Shown piece after piece: positions 6,157 through 29,631 of a stretch of 64,000 nt of DNA (the stretch's first letter is position 1; every line of letters begins with the position of its first letter). The translations under genes were made by a program, and so were the position numbers. The notes beneath the pieces were generated by a model. The model saw only the letters and a list, made by a program, of their open reading frames with translations. It made no database searches and was not told the DNA's origin. Source of the stretch: Tuwongella immobilis (lineage in GTDB: Bacteria; Planctomycetota; Planctomycetia; Gemmatales; Gemmataceae); contig NZ_LR593887.1 in the NCBI RefSeq assembly GCF_901538355.1, forward strand, positions 5,246,920 through 5,310,919, read 5' to 3'.

Positions 6157-7218
6157 TCAAGCGTCGCCGTTTTTGCTCACGGAATCTTTCGCATCCGCAG
6201 AATGGGGGATGGGCAGATTCAGCTTCACTGGCGTGTGAAATGGCCCACTCACGGGTTGCGGCATCAGGCCGGTGGTCGGACGGCTGACATGCGTATCCAA
6301 TCGCACATTCGACCACAAATGCGGCCGCGAAGGTGTCGCTGCCACATACATCTGCTGCTTGCCACCCACAAAGACCCGCACCGACCCGCTGGATTGACTC
6401 ACGCAGATTGCCACCGCCTTGGTCATCTTGCTGACCGATGCCGCCGCCCAGTGACGCGATCCGAACCCGGCAGGCAGTTCCACATCCTTCGATGGCACGT
6501 CCAAATAAACACACCCCTCTTTGGCGATGCCTTTATTCGTGATAATGAACGCACCATCCAGCTTGGCCAATTCCTTAATTTGCTCGCGCACCTTGACTTG
6601 CACCAGACTGCGATCGAGCGTTTTGTAGCCCCGAAAGGGGTTGAAGTTAATCGGTCGGCATAGCGGCAGCACATTCTCCGTATCGCCGACGACGAACAAC
6701 GCCCCCACCGGCTGCCCTTCCCGGCCTTCACGCCCGATTTGGGCGGCCAGATCGATCACGCGGCGCAACGTCTCCACGGGAACCGTCGATTTGAGCCGAC
6801 GCAGATCGCTGAGCTTCATCTTTTCCAAATGGTCATTCAGATGAATGACACTCAGACTGTCGAGTGGTTCTGGTGCGTTGGGATCGTTCAGCACCCCGTT
6901 GTAGATCACCACCACACGGCCCATCTCTTTCAACTTGCCGCTACAGGTGGCCTCCAACAAGGCTTGCCCCAAGCGTTCTTGGATTGAGCGGGAATCGATG
7001 GGCAAATTGATGACCGTCAGCGTCCCTTCCTCGCGCAATCGGGGTGCGAGTTTCGCATGGTCGGCGGCGACAATGAGCCGAGTATCGCCCATTTCGGCGA
7101 TCACTTCGCTCCATTCCAACTGCGTCTCCGTCAACAGCACCACCGCATCGGCCATGACATGCGTGTTCAGGCAGCGCGCGGCCTGCAGCAAGCCCAAAGT
7201 TTGCGGCGGCAATGCCAT
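6157..7218 (-). CDS. Probable diadenylate cyclase (c-di-AMP synthase, DacZ/CdaZ-like layout)
   Basis: A 353-residue soluble protein. Residues about 165-290 form a DAC (DisA_N) domain: LDGAFIITNKG at 220 carries the Asp-Gly-Ala metal/ATP motif and GFGSRHWAAASVSK at 251 the second nucleotide motif. The usual second motif is RHR; here residue 257 is Trp. The N-terminal 160 residues (ADAVVLLTET near 23-32, VVVIYNG near 102-108) resemble the pyruvate-kinase C-terminal-like alpha/beta domain that precedes the DAC domain in DacZ-type enzymes. There are no membrane segments, unlike CdaA. Expected reaction: 2 ATP to c-di-AMP plus 2 PPi. It diverges from the PLP synthase gene at 7452. Confident as a DAC domain, less so on activity. 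Confidence 0.8.
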   Translation of the reverse strand: MALPPQTLGLLQAARCLNTHVMADAVVLLTETQLEWSEVIAEMGDTRLIVAADHAKLAPRLREEGTLTVINLPIDSRSIQERLGQALLEATCSGKLKEMGRVVVIYNGVLNDPNAPEPLDSLSVIHLNDHLEKMKLSDLRRLKSTVPVETLRRVIDLAAQIGREGREGQPVGALFVVGDTENVLPLCRPINFNPFRGYKTLDRSLVQVKVREQIKELAKLDGAFIITNKGIAKEGCVYLDVPSKDVELPAGFGSRHWAAASVSKMTKAVAICVSQSSGSVRVFVGGKQQMYVAATPSRPHLWSNVRLDTHVSRPTTGLMPQPVSGPFHTPVKLNLPIPHSADAKDSVSKNGDA

Positions 7219-7451
7219 GAGGATTCCAACCTGGAATGGGTGCTTATGGTGACAATCATCTGAGTGACTTCAATCTATTTTAGAGCAATCAGCGAGCCGA
7301 AACCAAGCGGCTTTCCCCGGAAAAATTCCAGAAATCACAAACTTCTTCTTGTTTTCAACGGGAAATGCCCAACTGCTCTTGTCGTAGTTCGAATGTTGTG
7401 CACAAAATGGGCGCGGGAACTGCCATTCGGCCCACTTCGGGGAGGATTTCC

Positions 7452-8795
7452 ATGGATGAAACGATTCTCCAGAGCATTGGACGCACACCGCTGGTCCGGT
7501 TGAATCGGATCACTCAGGGGCTATCCGTTCCGATTGCGATCAAGGTTGAAGCGAATAATCCCGGCGGCAGCGTCAAAGACCGCGTCGCCTTGGCGATGGT
7601 CCGCGAGGCAGAGCGACTGGGGCAGCTTCGCGCAGGTGGCACCATCATCGAAGCGACAGCGGGCAATACTGGCGTCGGACTGGCGATGGTGGCGGCGGTT
7701 CGCGGCTATCGCTGCATTTTCGTCTTGCCCGATAAGATGGCACCCGAAAAAATTGCCCTGCTCAAAGGCTACGGCGCGGAAGTGGTCATCACTCCCACCA
7801 ATGTACCGCCCGACGCTCCGGAATCGTACAACGGCGTCGCCGATCGCTTGGCCCGCGAAATCCCCGGTGCCTGGCGACCGAACCAATTCGCCAATCTCGC
7901 CAACCCCGAGATCCACTACCGCACCACCGGCCCGGAAATTTGGCAGCAGACCGAAGGCCGCATCACCGCGTTTGTCTCCGGCGTCGGCACAGGCGGCACG
8001 CTCTCCGGTGTGGCGCGGTATCTCAAGGAAATGAACCCGGAAATCCGCATCATCGGGGCCGATCCCGAAGGTTCCGTCCTCTCCGGGGGCACGCCAAAAT
8101 CGTGGAAAGTCGAGGGAATTGGCGAAGATTTCGTTCCTCGCACATTCAACAGCCAATTAGTCGATGAATGGATTCGCATCAGCGATGCCGAATCATTCGA
8201 GACCGCACGCCAAATCGCCCGGCAGGAAGGGATGCTACTGGGCGGCTCGACCGGCACCAATGTCGCCGCCGCACTGCGCTACGCCCGACGACTCGATGGC
8301 CCGCATCTGATCGTGGCGTTGGGTTGCGATACGGGCCGAAACTATCTCAGCAAATTTTACGATGATCGCTGGCTTGCGGACAATCAACTCACCGCCAAGC
8401 CGACCATCCGCGAAAGCATCGATGCCCTGCTGCAACAGCGAGGCCCACGCGAACTGCTCACCATCAGCCCGGAAGAACCGCTCACCCATGCGATTGCCTT
8501 GATGCAACGGCGGGGCATCTCGCAATTGCCCGTTGTCGCGGAGGGGAAATCAGTCGGTAGCATTCAGGAAGTGACCCTGGCACGCGTCTTGCACGATCGA
8601 CTCGACCCCGGCCAAGTCCGCGTCGGCGAAATCATGGCTCGCCCGCTGCCGATTCTCGATTCCGCAGTGCAACTCGACGAAGCGTATCGACTGCTCCTGG
8701 CGGGCAATACCGGGGTGCTGATCACCCATGCGGGCAACCTCGTGGATATTCTCACCCGCATCGATTTGATCCAACATTGGGGCCAACCGCGATAA
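7452..8795 (+). CDS. PLP-dependent cysteine/cystathionine beta-synthase with C-terminal CBS pair
   Basis: A 447-residue fold-type II PLP enzyme. The ATG at 7452 follows GGGGAGGA; longer in-frame starts lack a ribosome site. NNPGGSVKDR holds the Schiff-base Lys42; EATAGNTGVGLAM is the substrate loop; GVGTGGTLSG and GGSTGTNVAAAL bind the cofactor phosphate. Residues about 340-447 form two CBS motifs, as in cystathionine beta-synthase, but the mammalian heme-binding N-terminus is absent. The substrate is therefore either serine/homocysteine (transsulfuration) or O-acetylserine/sulfide; sequence alone does not decide. The CBS pair suggests nucleotide or AdoMet control. It is a single gene ending in a two-way hairpin. 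Confidence 0.88.
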   Translation: MDETILQSIGRTPLVRLNRITQGLSVPIAIKVEANNPGGSVKDRVALAMVREAERLGQLRAGGTIIEATAGNTGVGLAMVAAVRGYRCIFVLPDKMAPEKIALLKGYGAEVVITPTNVPPDAPESYNGVADRLAREIPGAWRPNQFANLANPEIHYRTTGPEIWQQTEGRITAFVSGVGTGGTLSGVARYLKEMNPEIRIIGADPEGSVLSGGTPKSWKVEGIGEDFVPRTFNSQLVDEWIRISDAESFETARQIARQEGMLLGGSTGTNVAAALRYARRLDGPHLIVALGCDTGRNYLSKFYDDRWLADNQLTAKPTIRESIDALLQQRGPRELLTISPEEPLTHAIALMQRRGISQLPVVAEGKSVGSIQEVTLARVLHDRLDPGQVRVGEIMARPLPILDSAVQLDEAYRLLLAGNTGVLITHAGNLVDILTRIDLIQHWGQPR

Positions 8796-17323: not shown

Positions 17324-18574
17324 ATGGACAACGACGCAACTCGTTGGGAATCCTTGATTTCGGCAATTCTGCCAGCCAATCGCTTTTACGCAGCGAAGCT
17401 CGCCGATTGGCAGCCGGGCCAACCGATTCCATTCACCACCAAGGCGGAACTCATCGCCGATCAGATCGCTCACCCTCCGTATGGCAGCAATCATTCCGCA
17501 CCACGAAATCAATACACCCGATTGCATCAGACCTCCGGCACCACCAGCGGCAAACCGTTGCGATGGCTGGACACCCCCGAATCGTGGCAATGGATGTTGG
17601 ATTGTTGGACCACGATTTTCTCCCGCTGCGGAGTGTCCGCCGCCGATCGCCTGTTTTTCCCGTTTTCGTTCGGCCCATTCCTGGGATTTTGGACCGCCTT
17701 TGAAGCCGCCACCCGCGCGGGCTGGTTCTGCCTTCCGGCAGGCGGAATGGCGACCACTGCCCGACTTCGCTATCTCCTGGAACACCACGCAACCGTCATC
17801 TGCTGCACCCCGACCTACGCGCTGCATCTGGCGGAAGTCGCTGCCAAGGAAGGACTTCCGATTCGGGAATCCGCCGTGCGCGCCATCATTGTCGCAGGCG
17901 AACCGGGCGGCACCATCGGGGCAACGCGACAGCGAATCGAACAAGCATGGGGCGCACGCGTGTTCGATCATTATGGCTTAACCGAAGTCGGGCCAGTGGC
18001 GGTGGAATCCGTCGCGCAGCCCGAAACGCTCGAAGTGTTAAGCGATGCCTATATTGCCGAAGTCATTAACCCACAAGAAGATACGCCTACGCCCGTTGGC
18101 GAAGTGGGTGAACTGGTGCTCACGAATCTCGGTCGGCTGGGCAGTCCGCTCATCCGCTATCGCACGGGCGACTTGGTTCGCCATCAGCGCACCGAGCGCG
18201 GAGAATTACGACTTGCCGGTGGGATTTTGGGCCGCACCGACGATATGATTCATATTCGTGGCAACAATTTGTATCCGGGTTCGCTGGAAGCGATTCTGCG
18301 TCGCTTTCAAGAGGTGGCCGAGTATCGCGTTACCTTGGAACAGACCGGGTCGCTGGCCGATCTGTTCATCGAAATTGAACCCATCCCCACGATCGGCGAT
18401 GGCTCTCGCCTGGCCGATCGCGTGCAGCGAATGTTTCGTGACGAGCTGCTGTTCACTCCCGAAATTGTCTGCGTTCCCCCCGGAACGCTGCCACGTTTCG
18501 AGATGAAAGCCCGACGGATTTTGCACCGCTCTACCCCAATTGACGGGGTGCCCCGAGGAGACCGCATCGGATGA
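17324..18574 (+). CDS. Phenylacetate-CoA ligase-like adenylate-forming enzyme
   Basis: A 416-residue member of the PaaK branch of the ANL superfamily (acyl-AMP formation followed by thioester formation). HQTSGTTSGKPLRW near 67-80 is the phosphate-binding loop; FDHYGLTEVGPVA near 211-223 is the adenine/acyl motif; YRTGDLV near 281 carries the ribose-binding Asp; GRTDDMIHIRGNNLYP near 304 is the hinge; PRFEMKARRI holds the C-terminal Lys of the family. The length matches PaaK. No other phenylacetate-catabolism gene is present, so the acyl substrate is unknown. The stop overlaps the start of the next propeller gene (ATGA), tying the two into one transcription unit. Confidence 0.85.
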   Translation: MDNDATRWESLISAILPANRFYAAKLADWQPGQPIPFTTKAELIADQIAHPPYGSNHSAPRNQYTRLHQTSGTTSGKPLRWLDTPESWQWMLDCWTTIFSRCGVSAADRLFFPFSFGPFLGFWTAFEAATRAGWFCLPAGGMATTARLRYLLEHHATVICCTPTYALHLAEVAAKEGLPIRESAVRAIIVAGEPGGTIGATRQRIEQAWGARVFDHYGLTEVGPVAVESVAQPETLEVLSDAYIAEVINPQEDTPTPVGEVGELVLTNLGRLGSPLIRYRTGDLVRHQRTERGELRLAGGILGRTDDMIHIRGNNLYPGSLEAILRRFQEVAEYRVTLEQTGSLADLFIEIEPIPTIGDGSRLADRVQRMFRDELLFTPEIVCVPPGTLPRFEMKARRILHRSTPIDGVPRGDRIG

Positions 18575-20880
18575 GACGGAACGTACTCGCCTGCTTGGTC
18601 GGATTGGCCCTCTTTGCGAGCCCGATCTATGCCGACAACTGGACCCATTGGCGTGGCCCGCTGCAAACCGGCTGGTCCCCCGCCAAGAATCTCCCCGACG
18701 ATTGGTCGCCGGCCAAACCCGGTGCCAACAATCTGATCTGGAAGCAGCCCATTGGCTTGCGCTCCACGCCGATTGTGCTCAACGGCAAGGTGGTCATCAT
18801 CACCAGCGACGGAATGGGACAAAACGAAGGCGAAAAGGTCGTTTGCTTGGACGAAAAGACGGGCAAAGTCGAATGGCAAGACCAATTCAACGTCTTCCAT
18901 ACCGACATTGTCTCCAGCCGCGTCGGTTGGACTAGCCCAACTGCCGCCCCGGAATTGGGTTACGTCTACGCCCACGGCACCCAAGGGTTGCTGACCTGCT
19001 ACGACCTGACCGGCAAAATCATCTGGCGACGATCGCTCACCGAAGAATATGGCCGCACCAGTGGCTACGGTGGCCGCATCATCGGCCCGGTCTACGACAC
19101 GGGCAAAGTGATTGTTGGCATGGTCAATTCGAGCTGGGGCAACCATGCGCGGGGTGGCTGCCGATTCTATGCCTTCGACGCCAAAACGGGCGAAGTCGTT
19201 TGGGTGTCTGATCCCTGTGGCACCATCAACAACACGCACAACTCCACGCCGGTGGTGGCGACCATCAATGGCGAACGGCTGTTGATCGCCGGTGCCGCCG
19301 ATGGCACCGTGGTGGCCGTGCAAGTGCATACGGGCAAAAAGGTTTGGGCGTATCCGATGACCTCTGGTGTCGTGAACGGCTCGCCGATCGTGAACGGCAC
19401 GATGGTCTACGTCGGCCACGGGGATGAGAACCTGGTCGGTGGCGGCGGCGGTGCCTTCATCTGCTTGGATGCCAGCAAGATCGAAAACGGCAAGCCCAAA
19501 CTGGTGTGGGAATATAAGAAGAATAACACCCGTTTCGGTCTGGCCAACCCCGCGTATTACGATGGCCGCATCTACGCACCGGACGACTTCGGCAAACTGT
19601 ATTGCTTCGATGCGAAGAAGGGCAAGCTGCTGTGGAAGTATAACTACGGCCGCGTCGCTCGTGGTTCGCCGCTGATTGCCGACAACAAAGTCTACATCTT
19701 TGAAGTGAACTCGAACCTGCACATTCTGGCGCTCAACGGCGATGAAGAACCGGAAGAAACCTCGAAGGTGTTCTTCCGCGATACCACGGGGCTGGGCTTC
19801 GTGGAAACCAACTGCACGCCGTGCGCCGTCAATGGCCGCGTGATTTTCGGCACCCGCGATGAACTGTTCTCGATCGGTCTGGCGGGCGAACCGCAAGCCG
19901 AAATGGTTGCCCCCGAAAAGCCGACTGCCCCAGCAACGGGTCCGGTGGCGCAAATCATTGCCGTGCCGGGAGAAGTGTCGATTGCACCGGGCAGCACACT
20001 CAAGGTGACGCTGCAAGGGTTCACGGCCAAGGGCGAACCCGTGGCGAACGCGAACCTGGGCGAAGTGACCTGGACGTTGCCGGAACCCCCGCCGCCACCG
20101 ATGTCGATGCTCAAGCCGCCCGCGCTGAAGGCGAAAGTCACCGCGACCGGGCCGACGACTGCGGATGTGGTCATCGACAAGATGCCGCCGGGCCAACAAG
20201 GTCTGGTGCTGGCCAAGAGCGGGAACATGACCGCGAGTGTGCGAGTTCGGGTGGTGCCGCAACTGCCGTACAAGGTTGACTTTAACGCCGCTCCGGTGGG
20301 TGCCCCGCCGGGTGGGTGGGTCAACGCTGCGGGCAAATTCGTCATCGCGGAAGTGGACGGCGAAAAGGTGCTGCTGAAGGTCAATAACAATGCCCGAGTG
20401 CCCATCGCCAAGGCGAACGGTTACATCACGCTGCCGACTGCATCGAATTACACCATTCAATGCGATCTGATGGCGAAGGAAGTGCGCGAACAACTGCCGG
20501 ACTTCGGCCTGGTCGCCAATCGCTACACGCTGCTGTTGGATGGCAAAAAGGATAGCCCATCGTCCAAACGTCGGATTAGCTTGACTGCCTGGGAAGCGAT
20601 GCCGCGATTGAAGCAGGAAGTGGAATTCGATTGGAAGCCCGACGTTTGGTATCGCGCCAAGCTGACGGTCGATACGGCCAATGGAAAGACCACGATCAAA
20701 GGCAAAATCTGGCCGCGCGAAGATGCCGAACCGACCGATTGGACCATCTCGTTCGTCGATCCTCGCCCGCAATTGGAAGGAAGCGCCGCGCTGTTTGGCA
20801 GCATCAAGAATGTGCTGGAAGGCAAGCCCGGTTCGCCTGCGTATTTTGACAATCTCGTAATTACCCCGAACTCGAAATAA
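18571..20880 (+). CDS. Secreted PQQ-like beta-propeller protein with C-terminal lectin-like domain
   Basis: A 769-residue exported protein. The ATG at 18571 overlaps the ligase stop and has GAGGAGA ten bases upstream; the signal peptide is MRRNVLACLVGLALFASPIYA. Residues about 20-440 form the propeller (NWTHWRGPLQTG; LDEKTGKVEWQD; FDAKTGEVVWVS; VHTGKKVWAY; FDAKKGKLLWKY). About 455-560 is a Pro-rich Ig-like segment (EPPPPPMSMLKPP). About 570-769 is a beta-sandwich of the concanavalin/DUF1080 sort (NYTIQCDLMAKE, DVWYRAKLTV, AYFDNLVI at the end), usually sugar- or surface-binding. The product is probably periplasmic or surface-located, and the pairing with a ligase is unexplained. Confidence 0.85.
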   Translation: MRRNVLACLVGLALFASPIYADNWTHWRGPLQTGWSPAKNLPDDWSPAKPGANNLIWKQPIGLRSTPIVLNGKVVIITSDGMGQNEGEKVVCLDEKTGKVEWQDQFNVFHTDIVSSRVGWTSPTAAPELGYVYAHGTQGLLTCYDLTGKIIWRRSLTEEYGRTSGYGGRIIGPVYDTGKVIVGMVNSSWGNHARGGCRFYAFDAKTGEVVWVSDPCGTINNTHNSTPVVATINGERLLIAGAADGTVVAVQVHTGKKVWAYPMTSGVVNGSPIVNGTMVYVGHGDENLVGGGGGAFICLDASKIENGKPKLVWEYKKNNTRFGLANPAYYDGRIYAPDDFGKLYCFDAKKGKLLWKYNYGRVARGSPLIADNKVYIFEVNSNLHILALNGDEEPEETSKVFFRDTTGLGFVETNCTPCAVNGRVIFGTRDELFSIGLAGEPQAEMVAPEKPTAPATGPVAQIIAVPGEVSIAPGSTLKVTLQGFTAKGEPVANANLGEVTWTLPEPPPPPMSMLKPPALKAKVTATGPTTADVVIDKMPPGQQGLVLAKSGNMTASVRVRVVPQLPYKVDFNAAPVGAPPGGWVNAAGKFVIAEVDGEKVLLKVNNNARVPIAKANGYITLPTASNYTIQCDLMAKEVREQLPDFGLVANRYTLLLDGKKDSPSSKRRISLTAWEAMPRLKQEVEFDWKPDVWYRAKLTVDTANGKTTIKGKIWPREDAEPTDWTISFVDPRPQLEGSAALFGSIKNVLEGKPGSPAYFDNLVITPNSK

Positions 20881-20968: not shown

Positions 20969-23065
20969 ATGAGTTCAGTTCTCACTGTGTTGAAACGCTT
21001 GCTCGCGCTGGTGGTTCTGGTCGGCGTGATCTATGGCGCGTTCAAACTGAATGAAGCCGGCGTTGTCGCCAAGTCGAATAAATCGACCGAAACCACGGCA
21101 CCGGAAACGGTTGCGTCGGTGGCTCCGGCCCCTGCTCCGGCCGCTCCGACGACCCAAGCCGCCCCGCCGACTCCGCCCAAACCGATGGTGGAAGCGCCCA
21201 AGCCGGTCACGCCGCCCGCACCCAAGCCCGAAATGACCAAGCCCGAAGCACCAAAGCCCGAAGCGCCGAAGCCCGAAGCGCCGAAGCCCGTGACGCCGCC
21301 CGCTCCCAAGCCCGAAACGCCCAAGCCCGAAACGCCCAAGCCCGAAACGCCCAAGCCGGTGACGCCGCCCGCGCCGAAACCCGAAACGCCGAAGCCCGAA
21401 ACGCCCAAGCCGGTGGTTCCCGCCGTTCCGTTGAAGCCGGCGACTCCGGCAGCTCCGGCAGCTCCGGCAGCCACGGGCGCGAAGGCCGTGTTGGCCCCCG
21501 TCGCTGGCTCGTGGGCGATGTTCGGTGGCAGCGTGGTCCGCAATATGGTCAACCCGCACGACAAAGACATCCCCACGGAATTTGACGTTCCGGGTGGCGA
21601 AGGCGTGAAGTGGAAGGCCGAACTCGGCTCGAAGTCGTATGGTGGTCCGACCATTGCTGCGGGCAAAGTCTTCGTCGGCACCAACAACGATAAGGCTCGC
21701 AATCCCCGTGACCGCGAAAAGCCCGCGGAAGGCGAAGAAGAAGGCAAGCCGCTCGATAAGGGCGTGCTGATGGCCTTCGATGAAAAGACCGGCCAATTCC
21801 TGTGGCAGCACGTCAACGACAAGCTCCCCAGCGGTCAGGTCAACGACTGGCCGCACGAAGGTGTCTGCTCGACGCCGACCGTGGAAGGCAATCGTCTGTA
21901 CTACGTCACCAATCGCTGCGAACTGGTTTGCTTGGATGTCAACGGATTCTTGGATAGCAAGAACGATGGCATCACCACAGAAAAGTACCAAGACAAGACC
22001 GATGCGGATGTCATCTGGGCGTATGACCTGATGGCGAACGACAAAGTCTTCCCGCACAACATGTCGAACTGTGCCCCGTTGATCGTGGGCGATTTGCTGT
22101 TCATCGTCACCGCCAACGGCGTGGACGAAGGGCACATCAACATCCCGGCTCCGGAAGCGCCGAGCTTCATGTGCCTGGAAAAGGCCACTGGCAAGCCGGT
22201 GTGGCGCAACAACTTGCCGGGCCGCAACATCATGCACGGCCAATGGTCCAACCCCAGCTACGCCGAAATCAAGGGCGTGCCGCAAGTGATGTTCCCGGGT
22301 GGCGACGGTGTGCTGTACAGCTTCGAGCCGAAGACCGGCAAGCTGCTGTGGAAGTTCGCCTGCAATCCCAAGGATGCCAAGTATGAATTGGGCGGTCGTG
22401 GCACCAAGAGCGACTTCATCGCCACGCCGGTGATCTGGCAAGACAAGGTGTATATTGGCACCGGCCAAGATCCGGAACACCTCGACGGCATCGGCCACCT
22501 GTGGTGCATCGATCCGACCAAGGCAACGCCGGATGCCGATGGCGATATTTCCCCCAAAGACGAAGCCTTTGATCCGAAGGCTCCCGTCAATGCCAAGTCG
22601 GGTCTGGTTTGGCACTTCGGCGGCAAGGAAACCAAGCCAAACTCCAAGCGGGAATTCGTCTTCGGTCGCACCATGTCCACGGTGGCGATTGTCGATGGCA
22701 TTCTGTATGTCGCGGAATTGAACGGCTTCTTCTTCTGCCTGGATGCCAACACTGGGAAGAAGTTTTACCTGTATGACCTGAAGTCGGGCATCTGGGGCTC
22801 GCCGTATTTCGTGGATGGCAAAATCTACATCGGCAACGAAGACGGCGATTTGTTCATCTTCCGCCATGTGGCCAAGCCAGAAGCCATTGATGACGATGTT
22901 GCCGACCGCGCGACCGCGAAGAAACTCAAAGCCGACATCGAAAAGAAGTACCTCGTCAAGAAGCTGACCGTGGATGAGCCGATCCGCTCGACTCCAGTGG
23001 TGGCCAACGGCGTGCTGTACATTCTGACCGAGCGTTCGCTGGTGGCCATCGGCAAGAAAGACTAA
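20969..23065 (+). CDS. Membrane-anchored PQQ-like beta-propeller protein with Pro-rich stalk
   Basis: A 698-residue protein, start at 20969 with AAGGGA upstream. One N-terminal membrane segment (LLALVVLVGVIYGAF, about residues 11-25) is followed by a stalk of about 110 residues rich in Pro, Lys, Glu and Ala, including tandem PKPET/PKPEA units, and then a propeller from about residue 175 to the end (WAMFGGSVVRNM, FDEKTGQFLWQH, LEKATGKPVWRN, FEPKTGKLLWKF, LDANTGKKFYLYD). The lack of a cleavage site suggests it stays anchored, with the stalk crossing the periplasm or peptidoglycan-containing layer. It may be transcribed with the preceding genes (88-base gap) and ends at a strong terminator. Confidence 0.85.
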   Translation: MSSVLTVLKRLLALVVLVGVIYGAFKLNEAGVVAKSNKSTETTAPETVASVAPAPAPAAPTTQAAPPTPPKPMVEAPKPVTPPAPKPEMTKPEAPKPEAPKPEAPKPVTPPAPKPETPKPETPKPETPKPVTPPAPKPETPKPETPKPVVPAVPLKPATPAAPAAPAATGAKAVLAPVAGSWAMFGGSVVRNMVNPHDKDIPTEFDVPGGEGVKWKAELGSKSYGGPTIAAGKVFVGTNNDKARNPRDREKPAEGEEEGKPLDKGVLMAFDEKTGQFLWQHVNDKLPSGQVNDWPHEGVCSTPTVEGNRLYYVTNRCELVCLDVNGFLDSKNDGITTEKYQDKTDADVIWAYDLMANDKVFPHNMSNCAPLIVGDLLFIVTANGVDEGHINIPAPEAPSFMCLEKATGKPVWRNNLPGRNIMHGQWSNPSYAEIKGVPQVMFPGGDGVLYSFEPKTGKLLWKFACNPKDAKYELGGRGTKSDFIATPVIWQDKVYIGTGQDPEHLDGIGHLWCIDPTKATPDADGDISPKDEAFDPKAPVNAKSGLVWHFGGKETKPNSKREFVFGRTMSTVAIVDGILYVAELNGFFFCLDANTGKKFYLYDLKSGIWGSPYFVDGKIYIGNEDGDLFIFRHVAKPEAIDDDVADRATAKKLKADIEKKYLVKKLTVDEPIRSTPVVANGVLYILTERSLVAIGKKD
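21195..21416 (+). repeat. Tandem codon repeat for PKPET/PKPEA units
   Basis: In-frame repeats of a 15-base unit (CCCAAGCCCGAAACG and variants) code for the stalk of the membrane-anchored propeller. Units differ mainly at the last codon (ACG or GCG). It is a coding low-complexity array, prone to length change. Confidence 0.8.
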
Positions 23066-26121: not shown

Positions 26122-26269
26122 GAGAGAGTCCTTCGGTTGAACGGAGTCGATGAATCAGGCACTACCGCGTGCCCATTGTATGCCGCCAAATGGACGGAAA
26201 CCAAGCAAAAGTCGCCGCAGCCAATCGCTTTCGATTTGTTGCAAGCCGTGCCCCTGCCAGAGTTACCGG

Positions 26270-27811
26270 TTATTCGCTGGGCACATCAAACAATTCGAAC
26301 AATTTCCCCCGCCAGAGCGATTTTCGACCCGCCAACAATTCTCGCATCAACGGCCACTGTTGGATACGCTCATATTCATTGGCTTCTTGCGGAAGTGGGA
26401 TCGCCAATCGCCGCCCCTGCGTGACGGCCCGCACGGCGGCCTGCTCGCGGGGTGTATACACGGGCATGGTCGTCAACCAACCGCATTCCGGTGCGATGAA
26501 TCGCGGATCAAAAACCGACTCCGGGAAACTGGCCAACACGACAAACGGCTCCGGATTGCGTTGCAGCAATTGGTGATATTCGTCGACCAGTTTCGGGGAT
26601 TGGCCCAGGATTTCCCCCGGTCCCAACGGCACGCGGTTCTGCCAGGCGGTGATTTGATAGCCGCCAAAAATCAGCATCGGCGGCAATGTCGCCAGGATGG
26701 CAACGCCAACGCATTGGAATTGCAATCGGGGCCATGCGGAGAGTCGATTCAACCACCCCGCCGAAGCCACGAAGGTAAATGTGCAGAAATAGAACCATGT
26801 CGCCGGATGTCCGTAGAGCAGGAACATTCCGGCCCCGGCCAATCCCCCCATCAGAAGCCGCAGATCGGATTCGGCGGTTCCCCCGAATCGTCGCCATGCT
26901 CCGAGAATGACTCCCGCCCCAACGAGCAATCCCACCGACAGCAAAATCCAACTGGCAAACGGCTCAAAGAGATAATTCATCCAGGAATTCGCCGCCGGGT
27001 CCCAAATCACTCGCCCAATCGGACGAAAGAACCCGTAGCCCTCATCCTGATAAAATTTCCGGGGGATGCTCGGCCAGAGCATTTGCCACAGCGACAATCG
27101 GCCGAAGATAGCCAGAAAACCGAGCGTTCCGATGACCGCCCAAAGAATCGGAATCCGAATCATCCGCAGACTCTCCACGCGAGTCCGCCGACCGGTCGCC
27201 AGGGAATGCAACTCCAATGCGAACAATCCCGCCAAAAGCAGATAGCCCAACCCGGCTTTCACCCAGGCTGCCGTAATCGCCCAAACCCATGCCCCAGAAC
27301 GATTTCCGCTCGCCAATTGCTGAAACGATGCGAGCAAAAAGATCTTTTCGAGCAAATGAACGGTGGAGAGGTGAATCGGAATTACGATCCAAAACAACCA
27401 GACCGCCATCATTGTGCGAGCCGCCCCACCCCACCGGCAAATTTCGCTCAGCCGCCAGACCTGCCACGACATCAAGAATCCGCCGACATATTGCAGCAGA
27501 ATCAGCGCGAGCGGTTCCGGTCCCGCGCAGCCCATGACGAATCGCGTGACCATCAGCCCGAGCGGCCCGTAAAAATAGGTAAAATCGATGGTGGGAATCA
27601 GGCCACGCGCCAGGAGTTGATCCAAGCGCATTGCTGCCCCCTGATCGATTCGCAGCCATTGAAGGTAATCGGTCGCAAACGGCCAAAACAATATCATTTC
27701 GACCATCGCAACGATGAGCACCAACACCAACCACTTCCACTGCGGCGGGGCAGGCGCATCGGCATGGTTCGGTAAATCACAGGTCGCGGCGTGGAGCATG
27801 CGTGCGAACAT
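26270..27811 (-). CDS. Polytopic membrane protein, GT-C glycosyltransferase-like (paralogue 1)
   Basis: A 513-residue integral membrane protein with about ten hydrophobic segments. The first helix (LVLVLIVAMVEMILFWPFA) is followed by a loop MRLDQLLARGLIPTIDFTYFYGP whose Asp residues and 'YFYGP' recall the first external loop of GT-C-fold enzymes such as ArnT and PMT. The final 90 residues form a soluble domain (SPKLVDEYHQLLQRNPEPFV, APECGWLTTMP). Start: ATG 27811 directly abuts AAGGG, so ATG 27799 is an alternative. It lies 79 bases downstream of its paralogue in the same direction, and its last 29 codons are DNA-identical to that gene. Polyprenyl-phosphate-sugar use is inference. Confidence 0.65.
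   Translation of the reverse strand: MFARMLHAATCDLPNHADAPAPPQWKWLVLVLIVAMVEMILFWPFATDYLQWLRIDQGAAMRLDQLLARGLIPTIDFTYFYGPLGLMVTRFVMGCAGPEPLALILLQYVGGFLMSWQVWRLSEICRWGGAARTMMAVWLFWIVIPIHLSTVHLLEKIFLLASFQQLASGNRSGAWVWAITAAWVKAGLGYLLLAGLFALELHSLATGRRTRVESLRMIRIPILWAVIGTLGFLAIFGRLSLWQMLWPSIPRKFYQDEGYGFFRPIGRVIWDPAANSWMNYLFEPFASWILLSVGLLVGAGVILGAWRRFGGTAESDLRLLMGGLAGAGMFLLYGHPATWFYFCTFTFVASAGWLNRLSAWPRLQFQCVGVAILATLPPMLIFGGYQITAWQNRVPLGPGEILGQSPKLVDEYHQLLQRNPEPFVVLASFPESVFDPRFIAPECGWLTTMPVYTPREQAAVRAVTQGRRLAIPLPQEANEYERIQQWPLMRELLAGRKSLWRGKLFELFDVPSE
26279..26365 (-). repeat. 87-bp perfect direct repeat, copy 1
   Basis: Identical base for base to 27900-27986. It covers the 3' end of the first membrane-protein gene, coding IQQWPLMRELLAGRKSLWR followed by GKLFELFDVP. 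Identity stops abruptly on both sides. It includes all synonymous sites, which points to recent gene conversion or duplication of this segment. Confidence 0.95.
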
Positions 27812-27890
27812 CCCTTGGTTTCAGCGGGTCGTCGGTCGTCAGAATCGCTCGAAGTGATGGAACAGAAGCACGTTACGCGGCCATTGTCTG

Positions 27891-29429
27891 TCATGATTCG
27901 GGCACATCAAACAATTCGAACAATTTCCCCCGCCAGAGCGATTTTCGACCCGCCAACAATTCTCGCATCAACGGCCACTGTTGGATGCGGGCATGATCGG
28001 CATCGCCGCGGATGATCGGCACCCCGATGCGTCGCCCACGGACCAATGCCCGCAGTCGGTCTTGTTCCTGCGGCGTGAACACAGGGATGGTCGTGACCCA
28101 ACTGCACTCGGGGGCCAGAATGCGCGGGTCGAAAATTCCCTCGGGAAATCCGTTCAGCAGAACGAACGGCTCGGGATTGCGTGCCAAGAGTTCCTGATAT
28201 TCTTTGCCGAATCCCGGCGATTGGCCCAACCAAGGATGTTCGGGGAATAGTTGACGCGACTCCCATCGGCCCGAGTAATGCAACGAAGTCGTCATCATCG
28301 GTAGTCCGGTTAGCAGCACGAGTCCGAACACAATTCGCGGTAAGGCTTTGGAATGCTCGGGGAGTAATGCCAACACGGATGCCACGGCAAGGAACGTGAA
28401 CGGGCAGAAATAAATCCAGGTCGCCGGATGTCCGTACAACACGAACATCCCGACGATCGCCAACAGGGCCAATGCACTGCGGGTTTCGAGCGCGGCGGAG
28501 GACGGTCGGCTCCCCTGTCGGAACAATTCCACTCCGGCGACAATCGCCACGATGAGCGTCAACAGCATCCAACTCAGGAACGGCTCGAAGACAAAATCCA
28601 TCCACGAATTCTGGGCGGGGTCCCAAATCGCACGACCGTATTTGCCCCAGAATCCAAATTCTTCCTCGCGGTAAAAGCGCATCGGCACCAACGGTACCAG
28701 CATTTGCCAGACCGCTCGCCCTCCGAAGCACATCACAAACAGGGTGAGCAGCCCCAGCCCCAGCAACACTGGCAGTCGCACGGTGTGCCACACTTGTCGG
28801 GGAGTTTTGATCCGCAGCCAGTAATCCCGGCATTCCCAAACGAGAATCCACGCGAGCAACACCTGCCCCAATCCCGCCTTGACTGTGCAAGCCAACAATG
28901 CCCAGCAAATCGCCCCAGTGCGGCTTCCGGCCAACAATCGCATCAACGCGACCAAGAGAAAGCACTTCTCGAACAAATGAACGAACGATGCGTGCGTCGG
29001 AATCACGAACCAAAACAACCACACACCAATCAGAATCCGAATGGGCGCACTCCACTGCCCCTGCTCCGACATCCGCCAAACCACCCACGCCATGCCCAAT
29101 CCGCTCAAGCCTTGCACGATTTGGAACGTCGCAATCGGGTTGAGAGGCGTCAGTGCATGAATCGTTCGGGTCAGCAACACTCCCATTGGCCCGTAAAAAT
29201 AATTGAAATCAATCGTCGGAATCCGCCCTTGGGCCACAAGCTGATCCAATCGCAAAGCTGTCCCTTGGTCCAACAACAACCATTGCTTGAAATCCGTTGC
29301 ATATGGCCACCCAAGAATCGTCACGGCGAGTGTGAGCATCCAATATGCGAACAGCCACCACCAATTTGCGGGTGGGTGCGGGGATTCATCGTTGGATGGT
29401 GGATCGGAAACGGGTGCTAGTGCCGCCAT
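27891..29429 (-). CDS. Polytopic membrane protein, GT-C glycosyltransferase-like (paralogue 2)
   Basis: A 512-residue protein homologous along its full length to the 26270-27811 product. I use ATG 29429; an upstream in-frame TTG at 29471 would add 14 non-hydrophobic residues. Shared landmarks: LRLDQLVAQGRIPTIDFNYF plus YGPMG after helix 1, WLFWFVIPTHASFVHLFEKC, IWDPAQNSWMDFVFEPFLSW, FVLYGHPATWIYFCPFTF, and the soluble tail with APECSWVTTIPVFTP. The Asp-rich first loop again suggests a GT-C enzyme, but no donor or acceptor can be named. It diverges from the aldehyde dehydrogenase gene across about 200 bases and is probably co-transcribed with paralogue 1. Confidence 0.65.
   Translation of the reverse strand: MAALAPVSDPPSNDESPHPPANWWWLFAYWMLTLAVTILGWPYATDFKQWLLLDQGTALRLDQLVAQGRIPTIDFNYFYGPMGVLLTRTIHALTPLNPIATFQIVQGLSGLGMAWVVWRMSEQGQWSAPIRILIGVWLFWFVIPTHASFVHLFEKCFLLVALMRLLAGSRTGAICWALLACTVKAGLGQVLLAWILVWECRDYWLRIKTPRQVWHTVRLPVLLGLGLLTLFVMCFGGRAVWQMLVPLVPMRFYREEEFGFWGKYGRAIWDPAQNSWMDFVFEPFLSWMLLTLIVAIVAGVELFRQGSRPSSAALETRSALALLAIVGMFVLYGHPATWIYFCPFTFLAVASVLALLPEHSKALPRIVFGLVLLTGLPMMTTSLHYSGRWESRQLFPEHPWLGQSPGFGKEYQELLARNPEPFVLLNGFPEGIFDPRILAPECSWVTTIPVFTPQEQDRLRALVRGRRIGVPIIRGDADHARIQQWPLMRELLAGRKSLWRGKLFELFDVPES
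27900..27986 (-). repeat. 87-bp perfect direct repeat, copy 2
   Basis: Second copy of the repeat at 26279-26365, 1621 bases away in the same orientation, at the same place in the paralogous gene (last 29 codons, ending three codons before the stop). Confidence 0.95.
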
Positions 29430-29631
29430 TCGAGCGATTCTCACTTGGGGGATTCTCACGAATGCTGGCAACCTAGCACATCAGTCGGTTAGTCGCCGCC
29501 GATTTTTCCGGTCGAAAGAGAAACTGTGCCATTTCGCTGGCCGGTGACTAGAATAGTTTCAGAACCGATGCGACCATCAGCCGTGCCTTGACCGATGGTT
29601 CCTACCCTTGGGTCCATTTTGGATAGCAACG

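What the first reader, a model, noticed from the sequence alone, without database searches (positions are those of the whole stretch)
26279..27986. 87-bp perfect repeat at the 3' ends of two diverged paralogues
Positions 26279-26365 and 27900-27986 are identical at every base, including synonymous sites, although the rest of the two genes has diverged strongly. Identity begins and ends abruptly at the C-terminal 29 codons. This fits recent gene conversion, or a DNA/RNA element (for example a 3'-end structure or protein site) under selection.
Basis: seen in the sequence. Interest (0 to 1): 0.58.

Follow-up and report, generated by a model that had tools for sequence, protein, structure and literature searches.

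The report
Short gene-conversion tract between tandem paralogues
Two old, side-by-side duplicate genes for membrane proteins share an identical 87-base stretch near their ends, most likely because one gene recently copied it from the other, which is an ordinary kind of DNA repair event.

Summary
Bases 26279-26365 and 27900-27986 are identical at all 87 positions. They lie in register in two tandem minus-strand genes (26270-27811 and 27891-29471), 9 nt before each ORF end. Elsewhere the genes are 46% identical in protein and 55% in DNA; where they share an amino acid they share the codon in 81 of 195 cases, against 26 of 26 degenerate codons inside the tract. The best reading is non-reciprocal copying (gene conversion) between tandem paralogues. 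A conserved 3'-end element is not supported: the 87 bases occur only at these two sites in the 6.69-Mb genome, have no credible match in 396 other class genomes, fold no better than shuffles, have no credible Rfam match, and the C-terminal stretch is only averagely conserved in 13 homologues. A protein-kinase tandem pair in the same genome has a similar 119-nt tract in mid-gene. The sister-strain test could not be run: no same-genus genome is held. Donor and date are unresolved.

The parts
26270..27811 (-). Downstream paralogue W1, 513 aa, predicted multi-helix membrane protein of an unnamed family
   Evidence: ORF; 48% identical to its neighbour; no Pfam or NCBIfam match
27891..29471 (-). Upstream paralogue W2, 526 aa, tandem, 79 bp from W1
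   Evidence: ORF; sister of W1 with support 100/100
26279..26365 (-). 87-bp identical tract, copy in W1 (codons 483-511)
27900..27986 (-). 87-bp identical tract, copy in W2 (codons 496-524)

Best explanation
An old tandem duplication gave two membrane-protein genes that diverged until synonymous sites were close to saturated. Later a short non-reciprocal copying event (intrachromosomal gene conversion) replaced about 87-90 bp near the 3' end of one gene with the aligned stretch of the other. Shown: identity, register, old divergence on the 5' side, only two copies. Inferred: the copying step, homologous recombination as its route, and its recency. Not resolved: donor, and one event versus repeated events.
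For: Identity includes 26 of 26 degenerate codons against 81 of 195 outside. The boundary is abrupt, with nine differing codons in a row just before the flanking Arg codon. The tract lies in register with no indel at the homologous position. It occurs at two sites only in the own genome, and the 30-aa peptide likewise. The C-terminal stretch is not specially conserved in 13 homologues: 23% identity to W1, against 12-34% in other 29-residue blocks. Among 37 mechanically called paralogous ORF pairs in 1.264 Mb of this genome, a Ser/Thr-kinase tandem pair has a 119-nt exact run with 62% nt identity elsewhere, not at the 3' end. Gene-conversion tracts in M. tuberculosis have a median length of 101 bp, IQR 33-244 (PMC13061034, passages seen), so 87 bp is a usual size.
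Against: The longest exact run outside the tract is 17 nt. This is short for RecA-type initiation (minimum homology recalled, about 25 bp or more), so how pairing began is unclear. No sister genome shows the pre-conversion state. Most of the other long-run pairs in the sample lie in repetitive modules or doubtful ORFs and are weak support.
Confidence: 0.8

Rival explanations
1. RecA-independent copying: replication template switching or microhomology repair moved the 87 bp from one tandem gene to the other.
For: Short exact runs outside (at most 17 nt) and abrupt ends; short exact repeats without flanking similarity exist elsewhere in the genome (80 bp in L052, though that one belongs to a family with 38 matches).
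Against: The exact in-register position fits homologous pairing better than microhomology.
Confidence: 0.13
2. A DNA or RNA element (3'-end structure, protein site, internal promoter) kept identical by selection in both genes.
For: Both copies sit at the same distance (9 nt) from the ORF end.
Against: z-scores 0.90, 0.14, 0.07 and -0.21 against shuffles; no terminator-like site in the tract; one Rfam match below its gathering score, outside the tract; no further copy in the genome; one match in 396 other class genomes, 34 bases at 85%, judged a chance match on reading that sequence; 11 of 11 fourfold-degenerate codons agree, which a binding site rarely needs.
Confidence: 0.04
3. Assembly or polishing artefact.
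For: No reads could be examined.
Against: The genome is one contig of 6.69 Mb; the tract is far shorter than ordinary long reads and is flanked by unique, strongly differing sequence, so a collapse would not make just these 87 bases alike.
Confidence: 0.03

Closest known systems
Intrachromosomal gene conversion between paralogues in M. tuberculosis (PMC13061034, passages seen)
   Same: Short tracts (median 101 bp, IQR 33-244) matching another paralogue
   Different: There shown on a strain phylogeny; here only one genome is available
mtrA-1/mtrA-2 conversion in methanogens (PMC4632066, abstract and section list seen)
   Same: Two copies in one operon with one part homogenised while the rest differs
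   Different: A whole domain over long times; here 29 codons and no time series
tuf gene conversion in enterobacteria (cited in PMC8046335, passages seen; original papers not read)
   Same: Intrachromosomal conversion between duplicate genes
   Different: tuf copies are nearly identical throughout (recalled); here only 87 bp are

Membership tests
Gene conversion between tandem paralogues | Tract identical at synonymous sites, bounded by diverged homologous sequence | tested here: met
   On the 3' side only two codons remain before the stop, so the homologous flank there is very short
Gene conversion between tandem paralogues | Tract in register at the homologous position | tested here: met
   no gap around codons 483-511 / 496-524
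Gene conversion between tandem paralogues | Tract differs between strains while each gene otherwise matches its orthologue | not testable with these tools
   no same-genus genome among 95 family genomes; genome contigs gave no relative
Gene conversion between tandem paralogues | Donor identified | tested here: inconclusive
   codon-usage log-likelihood difference 0.08, inside both genes' ranges
Dispersed repeat or REP-like element | Further copies in the genome | tested here: not met
   2 places only
Structured RNA or terminator element | Folding better than shuffles, or a family match | tested here: not met
Diversity-generating retroelement (template and variable repeat) | Adenine-directed differences between the repeats | tested here: not met
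   no differences in 87 bases; both copies coding. Presence of a reverse transcriptase was not searched

The most novel reading that the evidence does not exclude
The 3' segment is held identical by repeated, locally confined conversion over a long time, so that two otherwise independent proteins keep one common C-terminal tail, for example to share a partner.
Probability: 0.07. Interest if true: 0.35.

Novelty: new member of a known kind. Interest (0 to 1): 0.12.

Why it matters
It is a clean single example of a very short conversion tract between paralogues that are only about 55% identical in DNA, in a planctomycete-type genome rich in paralogues. It bears modestly on how little homology conversion needs. 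It does not point to a new element or system.

Tried and rejected
Pfam and NCBIfam gave nothing for the two proteins. Pfam on 10 of the 15 homologue ORFs located gave only sub-threshold hits, among them PMT_4TMC at E 0.056 for L020. A PDB sequence search with W1 gave nothing. The weak DNA match in G240 (L031) is 34 bases at 85%; I read the sequence around it and judged it chance. The donor test by codon usage was inconclusive. The idea that the C-terminus is under unusual protein constraint was rejected (13 homologues, leaving out L007 and L008, whose frames run on into sequence that looks unrelated, and L028, not taken up). The idea of a 3'-end-specific process was not supported: the clean comparison pair has its tract in mid-gene. 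Of the 37 pairs, six had a run at least 50 nt beyond the longest in 100 column shuffles: this one, the kinase pair, and four that I set aside as repetitive modules or doubtful reading frames (S18 twice, S12, S17; L072 module with 34 matches; L051 repeat with 9). A first version of the survey used a greedy choice of longest ORFs and lost the window pair itself; one search replaced it.

Full report
Observation. The window is bases 5246920-5310919 of a single-contig genome of 6,690,754 bases. Two minus-strand ORFs lie in tandem, 27891-29471 (W2, 526 aa, upstream) and 26270-27811 (W1, 513 aa), 79 bp apart. Bases 26279-26365 and 27900-27986 are identical at every position. The tract covers 29 codons. 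After it come two codons that differ and then TAA or TGA. Before it stands an Arg codon that differs at one synonymous base, preceded by nine codons that all differ.

Is it more than chance? Outside the tract 219 of 478 aligned residues and 786 of 1434 bases agree. Where both genes have the same residue (Met and Trp left out) the codon agrees in 81 of 195 cases; 33 of 106 fourfold sites agree, close to random. Inside, 26 of 26 degenerate codons agree, with a pooled probability near 10^-9.9. The longest exact run outside is 17 nt. In 2000 shuffles of the codon columns the longest run averaged 14.7 and was at most 36. In the 64-kb window it is the longest exact direct repeat found by the 25-base seed search; the next is 38 bases.

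What the genes are. Neither protein matches Pfam or NCBIfam at E 1, and W1 matches no PDB chain at E 10. Relatives at 22-32% identity occur in 7 of 94 other family genomes with W1 as query, and in 14 of 396 other sampled class genomes with W2 as query. W1 and W2 are sisters with support 100/100, with branches of 0.52 and 0.71 changes per column. The duplication is therefore old and specific to this lineage among the genomes held. No third member was found in the genome. The proteins look like many-helix membrane proteins, perhaps GT-C-like glycosyltransferases by their DQG and YGP motifs; that last point is recalled and untested, and the fold prediction was too poor to use.

Conversion or element? 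The 87 bases occur at these two places only in the genome, and the encoded 30-aa peptide likewise. In 396 other class genomes the only match is 34 bases at 85% in one genome, which I judged chance after reading it. Folding of either strand, or of the coding strand with downstream sequence, is no better than shuffles. No terminator-like site lies in the tract. The one Rfam match, far below its gathering score, lies elsewhere. Among 13 homologues the matching C-terminal stretch is 23% identical to W1, inside the 12-34% span of the other blocks. So neither protein constraint nor a nucleotide element explains identity at synonymous sites.

Base rate in the same genome. I sampled 60 stretches of 20 kb plus the window, 1.264 Mb in all. 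ORFs of at least 120 aa were called mechanically, and 37 non-redundant paralogous pairs were compared. Six have an exact run at least 50 nt beyond the longest of 100 shuffles. One is the pair in question. One is a clean tandem pair of Ser/Thr kinases (L078:14465-17173 and 17357-19894; Pfam PF00069) with a 119-nt run at codons 106-145 and 58-97. The other four lie in repetitive modules or in frames that may not be genes, so I do not count them. Such tracts thus recur in this genome and are not tied to 3' ends, but the sample is small.

Mechanism. The simplest account is non-reciprocal copying between the tandem genes. Tracts of this size are usual: in M. tuberculosis a median of 101 bp is reported (PMC13061034, passages seen). 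What remains odd is the low homology around the tract. Either pairing started inside a formerly more similar 3' end, or a template switch was involved. Codon usage does not tell the donor.

Literature. One search for Planctomycetes with gene conversion listed 20 of 21 papers; none has both terms in its title, and I opened one of them (PMC4632066, on methanogens, abstract and section list). A search for Tuwongella with paralog gave two papers; passages of one (PMC8567305) report expanded protein families in T. immobilis. That this genome is T. immobilis is my guess from its size and family and was not tested. Other paper searches were made; passages of PMC8046335 were seen. I do not claim that this tract has been described, nor that it has not.

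Noticed in passing
L078:14465-17173 and 17357-19894: Tandem Ser/Thr-kinase paralogues with a 119-nt exact run and near-identical protein around the start of the kinase domain, 62% nt identity elsewhere: a likely second conversion tract.
   Followed up: partly
L072:5775-6422 and 6989-7681: Two neighbouring ORFs share a near-identical first 60 codons and have dissimilar C-termini; the shared piece has 34 matches in the genome, as in modular families with a common leader and variable ends.
   Followed up: partly
L051:9400-14000: Four copies of a repeat, at least 98% alike over 132 bases, with further partial copies elsewhere in the genome; open frames are short, nature unknown.
   Followed up: partly
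L052:10346-10425: 80-bp stretch with an exact copy 2.7 kb away without flanking similarity and 38 matches in the genome in all.
   Followed up: partly
window 21153-21428: 15-bp tandem repeats coding for a Pro-Lys-Pro-Glu-rich stretch in the 698-aa protein at 20969-23065.
   Followed up: no
window 26150-27775: A 541-aa open frame on the + strand lies antisense over W1; it looks like a shadow frame and misled a longest-ORF gene choice.
   Followed up: partly
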